Below are positions 12,311 through 23,347 of a DNA stretch of 43,170 nucleotides, piece after piece; the stretch's first letter is position 1; each line of letters begins with the position of its first letter. The position numbers were made by a program, and so were the translations under genes. Under the pieces are notes generated by a model. It did not search any database. It was not told the origin of the DNA and worked only from the letters and a program-made list of their open reading frames with translations. The stretch is from positions 1 to 43,170 of the forward strand of contig NZ_JAFLWA010000009.1 in the NCBI RefSeq assembly GCF_017316125.1. The letters run 5' to 3'. The stretch comes from Enterococcus sp. DIV0660C. Its GTDB lineage: Bacteria; Bacillota; Bacilli; Lactobacillales; Enterococcaceae.

Positions 12311-13825
12311 ATGAACGTTAGCACAATCATTGAAGCAATCGATCGCTGGGGCATAACTGAGCCTGAACGCGTGGCTTATCGCACAGCGCATGAAGAGTAC
12401 ACATATGGAAAATTGAAAGCAGCATCTGATGCATTTGCACATTATTTGGAAGTCAATATAGATGATAGAGAACCAATCGTCGTATTTGGTAATTTAGAAT
12501 TTGAAATGCTGGTTGCTTTTTTAGGAGCTGTCAAAGCGGGACACGCGTATTTGCCAATTGAAGAGCAGACACCCCAAGAACGAATCGAAGCCATTTTAAT
12601 GGTGGCGCAACCGACCTTGGTTGTAGGTTTAGGTGAGTGGCCAGAAGTGTTGAATCAACAGCCAGTTTTAACAAAAAAAGAGTTTGTTTCTATTGTTGAG
12701 GAAAAAGTTTCATTTCAGCCTAGTCATCCAGTAGAAATGACAGAAAACTTTTATATTATTTTTACTTCAGGAACAACGGGACAGCCAAAAGGCGTTCAAA
12801 TCAGTCACGATAATTTAAAAAGTTTTGTGGAATGGACATTAACTGATTTTACTATCCATCCTGGCATGCGTTTTTTAGCGCAAGCGCCCTTTTCATTTGA
12901 TTTATCAGTCTTCTCCATTTATCCTGCATTGGTTTCTGGCGGAATACTTGTTCCATTGGCAAAAGCAATTATTCAAGATTTCAAGCAATTATTCCAGACT
13001 TTGCCACAGTTAAAATTGGAAACATGGGTTTCGACACCCTCCTTCATAGATATTTGTTTGATGGAACCGCAATTTGATGAACAGCATGTTCCTGAGTTGA
13101 AGCAATTTATTTTTTGTGGAGAAGAGCTGACGAAAAAAACAGCGCAAGAGTTATTGAAACGATTCCCAAGCGCAGCAATTTACAACACCTATGGTCCAAC
13201 TGAAGCTACAGTTGCGATTTCCAGTGTTCAAGTTACGCAAGCGGTGTTGGATATGTATGAACGGATTCCAATTGGAAAAGTGAAATCAGATACAAAAGTT
13301 ACGATTTTTGCAGAAGATCAGCCTTGTACAGTTGGAGAAACAGGTGAAATCATTATTTCAGGGCCGAGCGTTTCAAAAGGTTATTTGAATAACCCAGAAA
13401 AAACGGAAGCAGCATTCTTTGAATATGAAAATCAGGCAAGCTACCGAACAGGCGATGCAGGAAGTTTGACTGCAGATGGCATGCTTTTGTATGAAGGCCG
13501 TTTGGATTTTCAAGTCAAGTTACATGGTTATCGAATTGAACTTGGTGACATTGAACATTATTTAGGAATGAATCCAACTATTAAACAAGCAGTAGTGGTA
13601 CCTAAATATCAAGGAGCCAAGGTTCAGCAGTTGGTAGCGTTCATCGTTTTAGAACAAGAAATCGAGCCATCGTTTCAGTTGACGAAAGCTATCAAGCAAG
13701 AGCTAGGAAAATCGGTGATGGAGTACATGATTCCACAAAAAATCAACTATCTTGAACAATTGCCACAAACACCAAACGATAAAATCGATCGTAAGAAATT
13801 ACTTGCTGAGGTGAATCCAACATGA
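12311..13825 (+). CDS. dltA: D-alanine--D-alanyl carrier protein ligase
   Basis: 504 residues. Activates D-alanine with ATP and loads it on the phosphopantetheine of DltC in the cytoplasm. The start ATG 12311 (MNVSTIIEAI) is chosen because TTAGGAGGG stands just upstream; an earlier in-frame start would lie inside that site. Adenylate-forming motifs are visible: FTSGTTGQPKG (P-loop), YNTYGPTEA, YRTGD, GRLDFQVKLHGYRIE, and the catalytic-lysine region NDKIDRKKL near the C-terminus. The 3' end overlaps dltB by ATGA. Confidence 0.97.
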   Translation: MNVSTIIEAIDRWGITEPERVAYRTAHEEYTYGKLKAASDAFAHYLEVNIDDREPIVVFGNLEFEMLVAFLGAVKAGHAYLPIEEQTPQERIEAILMVAQPTLVVGLGEWPEVLNQQPVLTKKEFVSIVEEKVSFQPSHPVEMTENFYIIFTSGTTGQPKGVQISHDNLKSFVEWTLTDFTIHPGMRFLAQAPFSFDLSVFSIYPALVSGGILVPLAKAIIQDFKQLFQTLPQLKLETWVSTPSFIDICLMEPQFDEQHVPELKQFIFCGEELTKKTAQELLKRFPSAAIYNTYGPTEATVAISSVQVTQAVLDMYERIPIGKVKSDTKVTIFAEDQPCTVGETGEIIISGPSVSKGYLNNPEKTEAAFFEYENQASYRTGDAGSLTADGMLLYEGRLDFQVKLHGYRIELGDIEHYLGMNPTIKQAVVVPKYQGAKVQQLVAFIVLEQEIEPSFQLTKAIKQELGKSVMEYMIPQKINYLEQLPQTPNDKIDRKKLLAEVNPT

Positions 13826-15027
13826 CGATCCCTCACATGATTCCTTATGCGCAACCACTCTACTTTTTGCTATTGTTGGTGGCATTAGCACCGATCATTT
13901 TTTCTTTACTCGTGCGGAACAAGCGATTACCGATTTATCAAGCAATTGTCACTTTCTTTTTCTTATTCATTAGCTTTGGTGGGGCAGATTGGCGGCAAGG
14001 AGTGGCTTTGTTTGGCTATGTTATCTGGCAAGTCGTTTTAGTGTGGCTTTATTTCAACTATCGACAGAAAAAGAATGAAACAGGTTGGTTTTACTTGGCA
14101 GTATTTTTGGCAATTGCACCTTTGACGATTACTAAAATCATGCCATTACTGACAAACAAACCAATTTCATTCATCGGATTTTTAGGAATTTCATATCTAA
14201 CTTTTAAATCCGTTCAGATGATTATGGAAATTCGCGATGGCATGATCAAAGAGTATCATCCGCTACGTTATATTCAATTTTTGCTTTTTTTTCCAACTAT
14301 TTCATCAGGACCAATCGACCGCTATCGTCGGTTTGAAAAAGACGAATTGCAAGCACCAAATGTTGAAAAGTATGTTGAACTGTTAGGAAAAGGTGTCCAA
14401 AACATTTTTGTTGGTTTTCTTTACAAATTTATTATTGGGTATTACTTAGGGCAAATCCTCGAACCAGAGTTGAAACATATGGTGATTCATAATGGCGGGA
14501 TTTCGTGGGCGTTACTTGGTTACATGTATGTCTATAGTTTGTACCTATTCTTTGATTTTGCTGGGTACAGTTTGTTTGCGATTGGTACGAGTTATCTTAT
14601 GGGCTATGAAACACCAATCAACTTTAACAAACCGTTTTTATCTTGGAATATCAAAGAGTTTTGGAATCGTTGGCACATGACGTTATCTTTTTGGTTTAGA
14701 GATTATATTTATATGCGCCTGATGTTTTTCTTGATGAAGAATAAAGTTTTTAAAAGTAAAATCGTCGCCTCTAATGTTGGATACTTTGTGCTATTTCTAA
14801 TCATGGGTGTCTGGCATGGGTTAACTTGGTTTTACATTGCTTATGGGATTTACCATGCAACTTTGATTTGCCTAACCGACGCGTGGATTCGTTTCAAGCG
14901 CAAGCACAAAGGTCAGTTACCTGCAAACAAGTTGACACACGCATTTGCAGTCTTCTTGACATTTCAGGCAATCTGTTTTGGTTTATTGATTTTTTCAGGA
15001 ATTTTAAATACCTTACTTTTTGCTTGA
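13822..15027 (+). CDS. dltB: DltB, MBOAT D-alanyl transfer protein
   Basis: 401 residues, ATG in the ATGA overlap with dltA. A polytopic membrane protein of the MBOAT family, which moves D-alanine from DltC across the membrane to teichoic acid acceptors. The two histidines of the active-site funnel are present: H285 in WNRWHMTLSFW and H332 in MGVWHGLTWF. They sit close to H289 and H336 of the Streptococcus thermophilus structure. Length is normal. Confidence 0.97.
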   Translation: MTIPHMIPYAQPLYFLLLLVALAPIIFSLLVRNKRLPIYQAIVTFFFLFISFGGADWRQGVALFGYVIWQVVLVWLYFNYRQKKNETGWFYLAVFLAIAPLTITKIMPLLTNKPISFIGFLGISYLTFKSVQMIMEIRDGMIKEYHPLRYIQFLLFFPTISSGPIDRYRRFEKDELQAPNVEKYVELLGKGVQNIFVGFLYKFIIGYYLGQILEPELKHMVIHNGGISWALLGYMYVYSLYLFFDFAGYSLFAIGTSYLMGYETPINFNKPFLSWNIKEFWNRWHMTLSFWFRDYIYMRLMFFLMKNKVFKSKIVASNVGYFVLFLIMGVWHGLTWFYIAYGIYHATLICLTDAWIRFKRKHKGQLPANKLTHAFAVFLTFQAICFGLLIFSGILNTLLFA

Positions 15028-15077
15028 TCTTTGATTGAAAAAATGAAAATGACATTTATTAAAAGGAGAGAATAAAC

Positions 15078-15311
15078 ATGGGAGAACAAATTTTAACAAT
15101 TTTAACAGATATTACAGGGACAGATGAGGTTCGAAACAATCGTGATATGAATTTATTTGATGAAGGATTACTTGACTCACTTGCAACTGTTCAGCTATTA
15201 GTAGAATTAGATGGCGAGTTAGGAATTCAAGTACCCGTTTCTGAATTTGTACGGGAAGAGTGGGCGACTCCAAATAAGATTATTGCACAAGTAGAAAACT
15301 TAAAGGATTAA
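15078..15311 (+). CDS. dltC: D-alanyl carrier protein
   Basis: 77 residues, ATG behind AAAAGGAGAG. The acyl-carrier fold carries the phosphopantetheine site at S34 in [15 protein letters not shown]. It receives D-alanine from DltA and delivers it to DltB. Its stop (TAATGATG) touches the dltD start. Confidence 0.97.
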
Positions 15312-15313
15312 TG

Positions 15314-16573
15314 ATGAAAAAGAAACTTTTTGCTATATTTGGACCAGTTGTTTTGGCAATCGCATTATTAGTTTTCTTATTTATCTCGCCCTTTCGTGTG
15401 AATGTACATGATCCAAAAGTTATTCATGAAGCAGCTAGTTCAATGTCTGGTAATTTATTGAAGGGAGACGCTATCAAAAACGAAGCGTTAGCCGAAGAAA
15501 AATATGTCCCCTTTTTTGGTTCAAGTGAATTGAGTCGAATCAGTCCTTTTCATCCTAGTGTTTTAGCAAAAAAATATCATCGTGACTATGAGCCCTTTTT
15601 ATTAGGCGCACCAGGTACCCAATCATTTAGTCAATTTATGTTGATGCAATCTGCCGGAAGTCGTTTGAAAGGGAAGAAAGCAGTTTTTATTATCTCTCCT
15701 CAATGGTTTGTTAAGAATGGTGTAAGTAAAGATTACTTCAATATGTATTATTCAGAGTTACAAACCTATGATTGGCTTTTTGGATTGAAAAAGGTGACAC
15801 CAGCTGATCGCTATGTCGCTCGTCGATTGTTAAGCTTTCCTAAAGTAACAGAAAATCAAACGCTGACAGAATTGCTCCAAGAAATCAAAGCAGGTCGGCT
15901 ACCTACTGAGAAAAATCGTAAGAAACTTTATCCTGCTTGGCAACTATTGAAAAGAGAAGATGAATTATTTAGTCCAATTGGTCTAGTTGGAAAACAAAAA
16001 CGAATTGATCAGGCAACTGGACAATTACCAGAAGTGTATCAAGATGCACAATTGAAAAAATTAGCCACTAAAATTGGAAAAAAATCAACGAACAATAATC
16101 CATATGGACTAAAAAATGAATTTTATACGCGTCGAGTGCGTCCAGAAATTGAAAAATTAAAGCAGTCACAGACAAATTGGGATTATTGTTATTCACCAGA
16201 ATTTTCTGATTTTCAGTTAGTCTTGGAACAACTTGCTAAACAAAAAATGCAAGTGCTGTTTATCATTCCACCGGTGAATGAAAAATGGAGTGCTTACACT
16301 GGATTGTCTCAAGAGATGTTACAACAATTTGCGAAAAAAGTGAAATTCCAATTAACCAGTCAAGGATTTAGACAAATTGTTGATCTAACCAAACAAGCAA
16401 ATACACCCTACTTTATGGAAGACACGATTCATTTAGGTTGGCAAGGTTGGCTAGCTGCCGACCAAAAAATTGCACCGTTTTTAGCAGAAAAGCAAGCGCC
16501 AACCCATTACAAGTTGGATAATGCTTTTTATAGTAAAGAGTGGCAACAAAAAGAACCAGATAAGTTAAACTAA
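15314..16573 (+). CDS. dltD: DltD, D-alanyl-lipoteichoic acid biosynthesis protein
   Basis: About 419 residues. One N-terminal membrane anchor (about 7-25) places the SGNH-like domain outside the cell. The nucleophile block FFGSSELSR and the C-terminal Asp/His block MEDTIHLGWQGW are visible. Two adjacent ATGs exist (15311, 15314); the second gives better spacing from AAAGG. DltD completes transfer of D-alanine to teichoic acids. It is the last gene of the operon. Confidence 0.95.
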   Translation: MKKKLFAIFGPVVLAIALLVFLFISPFRVNVHDPKVIHEAASSMSGNLLKGDAIKNEALAEEKYVPFFGSSELSRISPFHPSVLAKKYHRDYEPFLLGAPGTQSFSQFMLMQSAGSRLKGKKAVFIISPQWFVKNGVSKDYFNMYYSELQTYDWLFGLKKVTPADRYVARRLLSFPKVTENQTLTELLQEIKAGRLPTEKNRKKLYPAWQLLKREDELFSPIGLVGKQKRIDQATGQLPEVYQDAQLKKLATKIGKKSTNNNPYGLKNEFYTRRVRPEIEKLKQSQTNWDYCYSPEFSDFQLVLEQLAKQKMQVLFIIPPVNEKWSAYTGLSQEMLQQFAKKVKFQLTSQGFRQIVDLTKQANTPYFMEDTIHLGWQGWLAADQKIAPFLAEKQAPTHYKLDNAFYSKEWQQKEPDKLN

Positions 16574-20747: not shown

Positions 20748-22580
20748 TTAAATGCGAGAAAGTTGAATCGTCACTCGATCAAAAATTTCATCTTTTTCTT
20801 GAGTCAATTTACCAGAATACTTATCAGTAACAAGTTTTATCATCATTAAATCAAAGCGTTCTTGACTTTCTAATTCAGTTGTTATTCCACGATCAAAAAT
20901 ATTTGTATCATAATGTGCGTTGTGTTCACAATGAATAATTAAATCATCATCATTGACACGCATCGAAAGAAAAATCTTTCGTTGTAATGGATTTTCGATT
21001 GCATGCGATTCTCTGAAAGAATGCTCCAAGATATGAATCAATAACTGGGTCAAATCGTCATCGTGAACAAATAGATCACTTGGAAGTTCGGCATTAAAGT
21101 GGATCTCAATACTTTGTTTGTTTGCGATTTCTTGGTAACGTGCCAAAATCAAATTTGTCAATGAATGTCCCGATAGGGAAGTCATGATTTCAAACTTTTG
21201 TGCTTCATCAAGTAGTTCATTCAGATAATTTTCTGCTTGTTCTGGTTGACTGGTTTGTAGCATCGCTTGAATCGTTGTCATTCGATCTAAAAAGTCTAAA
21301 CGAAGGGTACTGATTTCTTTCATATGTGTGCGTAAAGATTCATAGTGTGCTTCAAGAAGATCTGTTTTGGTTTTCAAAAAATTCGCTTCTCGAATATTTT
21401 GATCTACGGCACGAATATGTTCTGAAATATTGTCAATCACAATGACTAACAAAATAATCATGTAAAGGATTGTCGACCAGTTAAGTGTGCTGACATAATT
21501 CCCCAAAGTACTTTGAATAAATAAGTAGCAGTGACTAATTGCAATCAGAATGATCCAAGGCGTACAGGAAACGAAAAAGCGATTTCCATGATATGCTTCA
21601 CCAATACAGGCAAGTGAAGTTACCAATGTGCTGAAAACTCGAATGATACTGATCCATTGCATCATCTCAGGAAGCTCTTCTGGTGTGAAGAGCGCATATA
21701 AAATTGGCAAGAAAGAGAAGAAAATCTGAAGAAGGCACCAAATGCCAAACAGTCGTTGATAACGTTCCATGCGCAACGCATAATAAGAAATCAGGAGTAA
21801 TGCACTTATAACGGTAAAAAGATGCGAAAGAGTAGAGTGAACGATTGGATCAAATAACAACCCACTCAAAATATCTTCAGACATTGCGCTAAAGCCAACA
21901 ACTAATGCAAAGCAACTTAAAAAGATCAAAGAAAGATCAAGCCGCTGCTGCTTGTACATGATATAAATCGCCATAATCAATGTTCCAACTGCTAATAAAA
22001 TTGCAATAATCATAGTCAAAAATTGTGGGACTGATTTAGAAAAGATGAAAGTGACCATTGAAGAGGCTGTGCCAATATAAACCTTTGGTGGGATTCCCGC
22101 AAAATTTACGTAAGGAGAGGTAACTTCAATGGATAATTTCTTTCCAGCATAATTATCGGGTAAATCAATGACCGCTAATGATAAACCAGGGTTTTTGCTA
22201 GTCGCGTCGCCCGCTCGTTCATAAAGAACTTGTTGATCTAATTGAACTTTGATCCATTGATGATTTCCTTTTAACAAAATATTCGCTTGGTCCAGTTTTC
22301 TTGTTAAGGTAGTCTCCATCACGAACGTTTCATTTTTAGAAACTTGTGGGACTTTCTCCAAATAATCACTATTGTAGCGGGTTTCAGGGTCATCTTTTGA
22401 ATAAAAATCCCAAGCTTGTTGGATTTCTTTTGTTTTATCACTATCTGCTGGCGAAAGGATAAAATAGAAGAAATAGCTAATGCTAAACAAAAATAACAAA
22501 GATAATATTATTATGGAAAACCATTTCATTTTTGTTGAAAAAAAATCTTTTTTATTATATGTGTTATTTAAAGGAATCAT
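20748..22580 (-). CDS. 7TM GHKL histidine-kinase homologue, predicted catalytically inactive
   Basis: 610 residues from ATG 22580 (MIPLNNTYNK), behind AAAGGA at 9-base spacing; an ATG ten codons earlier lacks a site. Order: one membrane helix (about 20-43), an extracellular domain of about 130 residues, seven membrane helices (about 185-385), a coiled-coil dimerisation segment, and a C-terminal GHKL-like ATPase domain. The expected RHD acceptor motif of AgrC-like kinases reads RLD (427-429). The N-box Asn and Asp positions read HILEH (516-520). The GxGL box reads ERFDL (574-578), although the following LVTDKYSGKL is clearly homologous. It probably senses an extracellular ligand without phosphotransfer. 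No response regulator is adjacent. Confidence 0.75.
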   Translation of the reverse strand: MIPLNNTYNKKDFFSTKMKWFSIIILSLLFLFSISYFFYFILSPADSDKTKEIQQAWDFYSKDDPETRYNSDYLEKVPQVSKNETFVMETTLTRKLDQANILLKGNHQWIKVQLDQQVLYERAGDATSKNPGLSLAVIDLPDNYAGKKLSIEVTSPYVNFAGIPPKVYIGTASSMVTFIFSKSVPQFLTMIIAILLAVGTLIMAIYIMYKQQRLDLSLIFLSCFALVVGFSAMSEDILSGLLFDPIVHSTLSHLFTVISALLLISYYALRMERYQRLFGIWCLLQIFFSFLPILYALFTPEELPEMMQWISIIRVFSTLVTSLACIGEAYHGNRFFVSCTPWIILIAISHCYLFIQSTLGNYVSTLNWSTILYMIILLVIVIDNISEHIRAVDQNIREANFLKTKTDLLEAHYESLRTHMKEISTLRLDFLDRMTTIQAMLQTSQPEQAENYLNELLDEAQKFEIMTSLSGHSLTNLILARYQEIANKQSIEIHFNAELPSDLFVHDDDLTQLLIHILEHSFRESHAIENPLQRKIFLSMRVNDDDLIIHCEHNAHYDTNIFDRGITTELESQERFDLMMIKLVTDKYSGKLTQEKDEIFDRVTIQLSRI

Positions 22581-22793
22581 ATGTAGCGGTCCTTTCTGAT
22601 TGAAGTACATTTAGGTTAAACTTTTTTTTATTTGTAGTCAATGCTTTTATAACACATAAATCGATATTTAATTAAGAAAATAAGGAAAATTATAAGCTTT
22701 AAATATCATTTTTCTAATAAAAAAGAAAAATAGATTAAATTTTATGTTATTATATTGTTGCTTAAGTAAATTAGAAAAATGAGGTGGAAAACG

Positions 22794-23306
22794 GTGCCTT
22801 TTAACAAAAAAATAACTCTTGTTGGCTCGACCATATTGATTCTATTTTTAGCCATTATCTTGTGCGTTGTTTTATTGCCACATTTATTTGGTTTGACGCC
22901 ACAAATCATCAATGATAAAGATATGGCTCCGTTGTATTCAAATGGAAGCGTCGTCTATGTGCGACCACAAAATGCGGAAGATATTTTAGTTGGTGATGTG
23001 ATCACTTATTATGAAAATTCTGGTGAGCGAGTGAAAACTCGGCGTGTGATTGCGGTAGGTGATAACCAAGAATATTTTTATACAAAAGCAGATACACAAA
23101 CACAAGTCGAATCAGGCAGGATAAAACCACGGAGTGTGATCGGAAAACCAGTTTTTCAAATTCCTTATATAGGTGCTTTATTGTCTAAAGACAGTTTCTC
23201 AAAAATGAATTTTTTATTTTGGGGCGTGGCAATTTGTTTAACTGCAGCTACGACATGGAACACGATAGATGAATTTCGAAAAAAGAAAAATTGTAGAATC
23301 ATTTGA
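22794..23306 (+). CDS. SipW-type signal peptidase I homologue, predicted catalytically inactive
   Basis: 170 residues from GTG 22794, chosen because GAGGTGG lies 6 bases upstream; ATG 22779 would place that site inside the gene. It has an N-terminal membrane helix (about 7-30), the S26 fold (GSVVYV, GDVITYYENSG, TKADTQTQVESG, IGKPVFQIPYIG) and a C-terminal helix (about 137-155), as in SipW/ER-type peptidases. The catalytic SxSMxP block reads DKDMAP (41-46), so the nucleophile Ser is Asp43, and the dyad His of THRV reads TRRV (Arg83). Both catalytic residues are therefore missing while the scaffold is intact. It is divergent from the kinase-like gene across about 210 bp. Confidence 0.75.
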   Translation: MPFNKKITLVGSTILILFLAIILCVVLLPHLFGLTPQIINDKDMAPLYSNGSVVYVRPQNAEDILVGDVITYYENSGERVKTRRVIAVGDNQEYFYTKADTQTQVESGRIKPRSVIGKPVFQIPYIGALLSKDSFSKMNFLFWGVAICLTAATTWNTIDEFRKKKNCRII

Positions 23307-23317
23307 TAAAGAACTTC

Positions 23318-23347
23318 GTTCGACAGAATTTCTGTCGAACTTTTTTT
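23318..23347 (+). terminator. Terminator after the signal-peptidase-like gene
   Basis: Perfect 10-bp stem GTTCGACAGA / TCTGTCGAAC with a 3-base loop, then T7. Confidence 0.9.

What the first reader, a model, noticed from the sequence alone, without database searches (positions are those of the whole stretch)
22794..23306. Signal peptidase homologue with both catalytic residues replaced
The S26 scaffold of a SipW-type signal peptidase is well kept (two membrane helices, GSVVYV, GDVI, TKAD, IGKP, IPYIG), but the SxSMxP block reads DKDMAP and the THRV block reads TRRV. Ser-to-Asp and His-to-Arg together remove the Ser-His dyad, and there is no alternative Lys in the LepB position that I can see. 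An intact reading frame with a ribosome binding site and its own terminator suggests a selected pseudo-peptidase: a chaperone, a decoy or a substrate-binding regulator of secretion.
Basis: partly seen in the sequence, partly recalled or inferred. Interest (0 to 1): 0.72.

Follow-up and report, generated by a model that had tools for sequence, protein, structure and literature searches.

The report
Dead signal peptidase beside dead kinase
Many enterococci keep a signal peptidase that has lost its cutting residues, nearly always beside a receptor whose kinase part has also lost its catalytic residues, so two former enzymes seem to have been kept together as a non-cutting membrane unit.

Summary
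Window 22794-23306 (+) encodes an intact 170-aa S26B (SEC11/SipW-type) signal-peptidase fold lacking the catalytic Ser and His. In all 50 rows compared (window included, five genus-level groups) both are gone: Ser column 0 of 50 Ser (nine different residues), His column 50 of 50 Arg. The gene is under purifying selection (median dN/dS 0.081, 25 pairs), and one loss suffices on the tree (support 87/93). Arg83 is the conserved change; Asp43 is not.

New here: in 49 of the 51 family genomes with the gene, it lies divergently next to the neighbour at 20748-22610 (-), a membrane receptor with an AgrC-type kinase module that is dead too (0 of 36 rows keep all three kinase boxes; 10 of 10 control kinases do). 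One outgroup genome has the pair with an intact Ser-His peptidase. Best reading: a two-pseudoenzyme membrane unit whose peptidase half binds a peptide without cutting it; contact and binding are inferred, not shown. Inactive signal peptidases are a known kind (S. pyogenes SipA, S. aureus SpsA); I found no report of this lineage or its partner in ten searches of open-licence papers.

The parts
22794..23306 (+). c1: inactive S26B signal-peptidase-like protein, 170 aa, GTG start; helices at residues 3-31 and 132-168 in the model
22920..22922 (+). codon for Asp43 in the nucleophile (Ser) column; variable across orthologues, never Ser
   Evidence: K15 A13 D8 G5 E4 Q2 N1 H1 T1 of 50
23040..23042 (+). 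codon for Arg83 in the catalytic His column; invariant
   Evidence: R in 50 of 50; H in 20 of 20 comparators
20748..22610 (-). c0: divergently transcribed receptor-like protein, 620 aa; N-terminal helix, beta domain (about 68-181), helical membrane region (about 182-395), dead AgrC-type kinase module (about 396-620)
20922..21035 (-). codons 526-563 of c0: former ATP-site region with H526, E529, H530 and H563 in place of Asn, Asp, Asn and Asn
22611..22793 (.). shared intergenic region between the divergent starts; GTTATTATA (22746-22754) is found upstream of c1 in 15 of 15 genus genomes
   Evidence: 9-mer counts; spacing of 49 pairs
23318..23340 (+). intrinsic-terminator-like hairpin after c1

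Best explanation
c1 is a conserved pseudo-signal-peptidase of the S26B (SEC11/SipW) type. It keeps the fold and the conserved boxes around the cleft but cannot cut in the known way. It works with its divergent neighbour c0, a membrane receptor with a beta domain and a dead AgrC-type kinase module. Shown: absence of Ser and His, conservation under purifying selection, one loss on the tree, and near-constant pairing with c0. Inferred: c0 and c1 form one membrane complex with their folded domains outside the cytosol; c1's cleft clamps a peptide segment (signal-peptide-like or pro-segment, or a part of c0) without cleaving it; c0 passes the bound state on by protein contact, not by phosphorylation. 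An intact peptidase next to a degenerate kinase in the outgroup genome G065 suggests that the ancestral unit cut its ligand and that the Enterococcus unit turned the cutter into a binder.
For: Ser column 0 of 50 and Arg in the His column 50 of 50, against Ser and His in 20 of 20 other S26B proteins aligned. dN/dS median 0.081 over 25 pairs. Invariant M44 G67 T82 R83 R84 D100 G117 P119 G127 in the 43 rows of A1: the fold boxes stay while the dyad goes. Structure matches SEC11C, SEC11A and SipA; profile match to SEC11A E 1.6e-9 with D100 on the Asp of the GDNN box. c0 and c1 both in 49 family genomes, divergent and adjacent in 49 of 49, gap 158-388 bp, even where other neighbours differ. The only two genomes with c1 and no c0 have a C-terminally shortened c1. 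c0 is degenerate in all 36 rows yet constrained: dN/dS 0.02-0.10 in both parts in 8 of 9 close pairs. Outgroup pair with intact c1 in G065.
Against: No experiment. Contact between c0 and c1 is not shown; divergent adjacency can also reflect shared regulation. In G005 and G011 c0 is broken by several stops while c1 is intact, and the c0 matches of G010 and G045 hold one stop each, so c1 can outlive c0 at least for a while. In group g3 the c0 helical linker is partly missing (on average 35 of 85 columns gapped against g1) and the former ATP domain is only 17% identical to that of g1, so the cytosolic output cannot be the same everywhere. Peptide binding is inferred from fold and from S. pyogenes SipA, for which direct binding assays were negative (PMC4049620, discussion). 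The single-loss branch is not starred (87/93; 84% of 200 bootstrap trees). The genomes share ancestry, so the Fisher p value is descriptive only. The order of loss rests on one 77%-complete genome and on an alignment in which three His lie two to four places from the kinase's phospho-acceptor column.
Confidence: 0.55

Rival explanations
1. c1 acts alone as a SipA-like chaperone that presents a secreted or sorted surface protein for assembly; the link to c0 is only shared regulation.
For: Same logic as S. pyogenes SipA: dead nucleophile, kept cleft, needed for pilus assembly (PMC4049620); Foldseek match to SipA 4n31, E 4.1e-4. c1 intact in G005 and G011 where c0 is broken.
Against: No sortase or pilin domain among the 15 window proteins other than c1 given to Pfam, between 13822 and 30613; c1 is shortened in the two genomes without c0.
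Confidence: 0.2
2. c0-c1 is a signalling pair in which c0 works like P. aeruginosa RetS: a receptor that modulates another, active kinase by a non-enzymatic bond, with c1 tuning its extracytoplasmic state.
For: c0 folds like AgrC kinases (6e52 E 1.4e-7) but lacks the boxes; AgrC-like kinases with intact boxes exist in family genomes (10 of 10 read); RetS precedent read in passages of PMC7695008.
Against: The helical linker that should dimerise is among the least conserved parts of c0 in the four groups compared and is partly missing in g3; no response-regulator domain among the 15 window proteins given to Pfam.
Confidence: 0.15
3. c1 still cleaves with an unusual mechanism (Arg83 as base with another nucleophile).
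For: Arg83, Arg84, Asp100 and Thr82 are invariant in 43 of 43 rows of A1.
Against: The nucleophile column holds nine different residues; no Ser, Cys or Lys is among the invariant columns; Arg is a poor general base (general knowledge). Phage 186 CI of the related LexA family also has Arg at the base position (PMC12984324 passage); that it does not cleave is my recollection.
Confidence: 0.04
4. c1 is a decaying relic on its way to loss.
For: Shortened in G029 and G035; c0 broken in G005 and G011.
Against: Low dN/dS, 15 of 15 presence in the genus, invariant Arg83, shared start, spacing and upstream word.
Confidence: 0.05

Closest known systems
SipA, S. pyogenes (PDB 4n31)
   Same: Signal-peptidase fold, nucleophile lost (Asp in its place), cleft kept, no detectable peptidase activity, needed for pilus assembly (PMC4049620: abstract, section 8 and section 12 part 1 read)
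   Different: SipA lost a Ser-Lys dyad and sits in pilus gene clusters; c1 lost a Ser-His dyad, carries Arg at the base position, and is paired with a dead receptor kinase, with no sortase or pilin among the window neighbours scanned
SpsA, S. aureus
   Same: Second signal peptidase that lacks two catalytic residues and is called inactive (PMC12445088, two passages read)
   Different: Its sister SpsB is an active Ser-Lys enzyme; c1 is S26B and has a near-constant partner gene
SipW, B. subtilis
   Same: S26B branch; has a second role in surface-adhered biofilm beside secretion of TapA and TasA (PMC4238804, passages read)
   Different: SipW is a working peptidase in tapA-sipW-tasA; c1 fails the SipW model cut-off (45.1 against 190 bits)
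SEC11A/SEC11C, human signal peptidase complex
   Same: Best structural and profile match
   Different: Working Ser-His enzyme (recalled) in a eukaryotic complex
RgsP-RgsM, Sinorhizobium
   Same: 7TMR-DISM receptor whose EAL domain is dispensable, acting with an extracytoplasmic putative metallopeptidase (PMC6107284, abstract and section 8 read)
   Different: Unrelated peptidase family and other cytosolic domains; an analogy only
RetS, Pseudomonas aeruginosa
   Same: 7TMR-DISMED2 receptor that acts on another kinase by protein contact, among other ways (PMC7695008, passages read)
   Different: c0 has no 7TMR-DISM Pfam match listed up to E 0.1 and its own kinase boxes are gone

Membership tests
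S26B signal peptidase (SipW/SEC11 type) by descent | fold and profile | tested here: met
   TIGR02228 55.2 bits over cut-off 51.85; SEC11A profile match E 1.6e-9; Foldseek SEC11C 2.2e-5
S26B signal peptidase (SipW/SEC11 type), as an enzyme | catalytic Ser in SxSM and His in the THR box (motif recalled) | tested here: not met
   0 of 50 Ser, 50 of 50 Arg in the His column; 20 of 20 comparators have both
SipW proper | NF046067 equivalog score | tested here: not met
   45.1 against cut-off 190
SipA-type pilus chaperone | neighbouring sortase and pilin genes | tested here: not met
   15 window proteins other than c1 scanned with Pfam, none a sortase or pilin; the other loci were compared only by clustering
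SipA-type pilus chaperone | required for assembly of a surface polymer | not testable with these tools
   needs a deletion mutant
AgrC-type histidine kinase (neighbour c0) | fold of the cytosolic module | tested here: met
   Foldseek 6e52 E 1.4e-7, 4bxi TMt 0.76
AgrC-type histidine kinase (neighbour c0) | H, N and G boxes | tested here: not met
   c0: His 1 of 36 (L131); both N-box Asn and the G box 1 of 36 (L149); controls 10 of 10 for all three
7TMR-DISM receptor (neighbour c0) | 7TMR-DISM Pfam domains | tested here: not met
   none listed up to E 0.1; architecture similar in the model

The most novel reading that the evidence does not exclude
Enterococci carry a receptor complex built wholly from two retired enzymes: a signal peptidase turned into a non-cutting peptide clamp (fixed Arg where the catalytic His was) and a histidine kinase whose ATP pocket was re-tooled. 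In groups g1 and g4 the ATP-site asparagines became invariant histidines (H526, H530, H563, with E529; 24 of 24 rows), which could be a metal or other ligand site. The outgroup pair with an intact peptidase would record the step before the cutter became a binder.
Probability: 0.25. Interest if true: 0.85.

Novelty: new variant of a known kind. Interest (0 to 1): 0.62.

Why it matters
An inactive signal peptidase fixed across a large part of Enterococcus, with its loss placed on a tree, a natural outgroup copy that keeps Ser and His, and a near-constant partner gene, makes the question of what a signal peptidase does once it cannot cut directly testable. It also flags an annotation trap: the dead protein passes the TIGR02228 cut-off in 15 of 15 genus genomes, so a pipeline using that model would tend to call it signal peptidase I.

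Tried and rejected
Decoy for an active SipW: unlikely in this genus, because no other protein passes the TIGR02228 cut-off in any of 15 genomes and the window's own genome shows only two Ser-Lys enzymes beside it; below-cut-off matches of the other 14 genomes were not read. Selected Asp nucleophile: rejected, the column is variable. LepB-type Lys: none among the invariant columns. Local mutation or sequencing error: rejected. Viral origin: one IMG/VR contig of 31 kb matched at 52%; not followed. c0 homologues outside the family: none among 395 order and 398 class genomes, whose 30 and 2 hits are all of this family; these are samples, and at most five candidates per genome were scored. Sequence search of c0 against PDB gave only weak matches, the best (E 0.023) in the helical linker. 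A Wntless match for c0 (8tzs, rank 36, E 5.4e-5) is weak and I do not build on it. Literature: ten searches listed no title or abstract start about this Enterococcus pair; I saw capped listings in four of them and did not open most papers, and only open-licence PMC text is held.

Rows dropped and choices made: the 51 genomes counted with c1 are those with E 5.1e-15 or better; 28 more genomes with weaker matches were counted as without it. The comparators are G065 and the 19 weaker hits that I fetched out of roughly 100 listed. A1 holds 43 of the 50 dead rows (left out: L017, L023, L024, L047 as near-copies or for size; L034, start unclear; L039 and L049, shortened). The tree holds 26 of the 50 plus 20 active rows, with three catalytic columns removed. 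The 25 dN/dS pairs share species. In the nine c0 pairs most have dS above 1.5 in at least one part, so their ratios are rough. Kinase-box rows: 30 c0 loci, G065 and 5 g3 rows, 36 in all; one (L146) is the longer piece of a broken gene, used as it stands.

Full report
What is there. The window lies in a 2.6-Mb genome. That this is the E. faecium group is my recollection of the taxonomy; no call names E. faecium itself. The gene at 22794-23306 encodes 170 aa. Orthologues share the start at GTG 22794. A terminator-like hairpin follows.

The fold. AlphaFold gives mean pLDDT 85.4 with one long helix at each end of a beta core. Foldseek's best PDB matches are SEC11C (E 2.2e-5), SEC11A (4.0e-5) and S. 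pyogenes SipA (4.1e-4). A profile of 43 rows matches SEC11A at E 1.6e-9, with window Asp100 on the Asp of the GDNN box. So this is the S26B, Ser-His branch. The same genome has two signal peptidases with Ser-Lys motifs (motif recalled).

The lost residues. Over 50 rows (window included) from five genus-level groups, four of which hold named Enterococcus species, the Ser column holds K15, A13, D8, G5, E4, Q2, N1, H1, T1 and never Ser; the His column is Arg in 50 of 50; Met, Thr and the second Arg are also 50 of 50. In 20 other S26B proteins from the same family of genomes both Ser and His are present, 20 of 20; these are G065 and the 19 weaker hits I fetched, not every weaker hit. Nine residues at the nucleophile position mean that Asp43 is not a selected replacement; the fixed Arg83 may be. 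The first-stage numbering (Asp43, Arg83) is right. Three g5 rows keep a Ser two places before the nucleophile column.

Selection and history. NG86 dN/dS for 25 pairs with dS between 0.05 and 1.5 has median 0.081. A tree without the catalytic columns puts the 26 dead rows used on one side of a branch (bootstrap/SH-aLRT 87/93, 84% of 200 bootstrap trees), with the G065 copy next to them (93/88; a long branch, so its place is less sure). One loss suffices.

The partner. On the other strand, 20748-22610 encodes a 620-aa protein, c0. In the window and 20 further loci of five groups, c0 was found in 21 of 21 and c1 beside it in 20 of 21 as the script called genes; in the remaining one (L087, G034) the two lie 190 bp apart by coordinates. 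Other neighbours change. Over the 105 family genomes held, c1 (dead, or the intact G065 copy) is in 51 and c0 in 50; both are in 49, and in 49 of 49 they are divergent and adjacent with gaps of 158-388 bp (c0 by profile also 50 of 105). Exceptions: G029 and G035 have no c0 and a C-terminally shortened c1; G050 has c0 at a contig end, so c1 cannot be seen. Against a strict dependence, c0 is interrupted by several stops in G005 and G011 while c1 is intact, and the c0 matches of G010 and G045 hold one stop each. The c0 receptor half was found in 30 of 395 order genomes and 2 of 398 class genomes, all in this family (samples, with at most five candidates scored per genome).

The partner is also degenerate. 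Its cytosolic part folds like AgrC kinases (6e52, E 1.4e-7). Ten AgrC-like kinases from the same family have the phospho-acceptor His, both N-box Asn and the G box, 10 of 10. Of 36 c0 rows, one has the His (L131), another has the full N box and the G box (L149, G061), and none has all three. Yet c0 is constrained: dN/dS is 0.02-0.10 in both parts in 8 of 9 close pairs, several with saturated dS; the ninth pair has almost no changes and gives no usable ratio. In groups g1 and g4 the former ATP domain is as conserved as the receptor part (mean identity 0.61 and 0.56 within groups, and 0.45 between them against 0.41 and 0.39). There the asparagines at positions 526, 530 and 563 (Asn in 10 of 10 control kinases) are His in 24 of 24 rows, and position 529 is Glu in 24 of 24. 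That these are ATP-site positions is recalled; that they form a new site, perhaps for metal, is inference. C561 beside them is 24 of 24 Cys but also Cys in 8 of 10 controls. In g3 and g5 this domain drifts.

Order of events. In G065 (genus g11) the same divergent pair carries a c1 with intact Ser and His, while the c0 phospho-acceptor column is Asn and the G box is gone. Taken at face value the kinase half degenerated before the peptidase half. G065 is one genome, 77% complete, and three His lie two to four places from that column, so the alignment there could be argued.

How it may work. Both proteins are predicted membrane proteins; I infer from their relatives that their conserved folded parts lie outside the cytosol, and I infer one complex in which c1 holds a peptide without cutting it. 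SipA shows that a dead signal peptidase can be needed for an assembly step although its Asp can be mutated without visible effect (PMC4049620, discussion part 1). RgsP-RgsM shows a 7TMR-DISM receptor with a dispensable EAL domain and an extracytoplasmic peptidase-family partner (PMC6107284, abstract and section 8). Phage 186 CI carries Arg at the base position of the related LexA fold (PMC12984324, passage). These are analogies. A decoy role is unlikely, since no other protein passes the TIGR02228 cut-off in 15 of 15 genus genomes.

Standing. Inactive signal peptidases are a known kind. An S26B one, fixed across a large part of Enterococcus with an invariant His-to-Arg change and a near-constant dead-kinase partner, is a new variant of it, as far as the listings of ten searches of open-licence PMC text show.

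Noticed in passing
window 20922-21035 (-), residues 526-563 of c0: Former ATP-site asparagines are invariant His (H526, H530, H563, with E529) in 24 of 24 rows of g1 and g4: a possible re-tooled ligand or metal site.
   Followed up: partly
L153:5358-7778 (G065): Outgroup genome with the same divergent pair but an intact Ser-His peptidase and a degenerate kinase module.
   Followed up: partly
L155:8913-9311 (-) (G035) and L156:11515-11958 (+) (G029): The two genomes without c0 have a C-terminally shortened c1.
   Followed up: partly
G005:C2:160855-162671 and G011:C1:777254-778493: c0 is interrupted by stops while c1 is intact.
   Followed up: no
L068, L072 and further places in G020, G026, G028: These g3 genomes list 11 to 19 matches to this protein, many in open frames of about 320-400 aa; the two I read (L068, L072) have long charged N-terminal extensions and intact Ser-His.
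   Followed up: no
L092:12829-14259 (+) and equivalents: A 477-aa prolyl-tRNA-synthetase-like gene (ProRS-C_1) lies directly downstream of c0 in 5 of 5 g4 and 2 of 2 g5 loci and in none of the other 14 loci; one copy was scanned with Pfam.
   Followed up: no
window 22746-22754: GTTATTATA lies upstream of c1 in 15 of 15 genus genomes.
   Followed up: no
window 13822-16573: An MBOAT and a DltD gene (dlt-like set) lie upstream in 7 of 8 loci of this genus and 1 of 5 g4 loci, and in none of the 8 g3, g5 and g9 loci.
   Followed up: no
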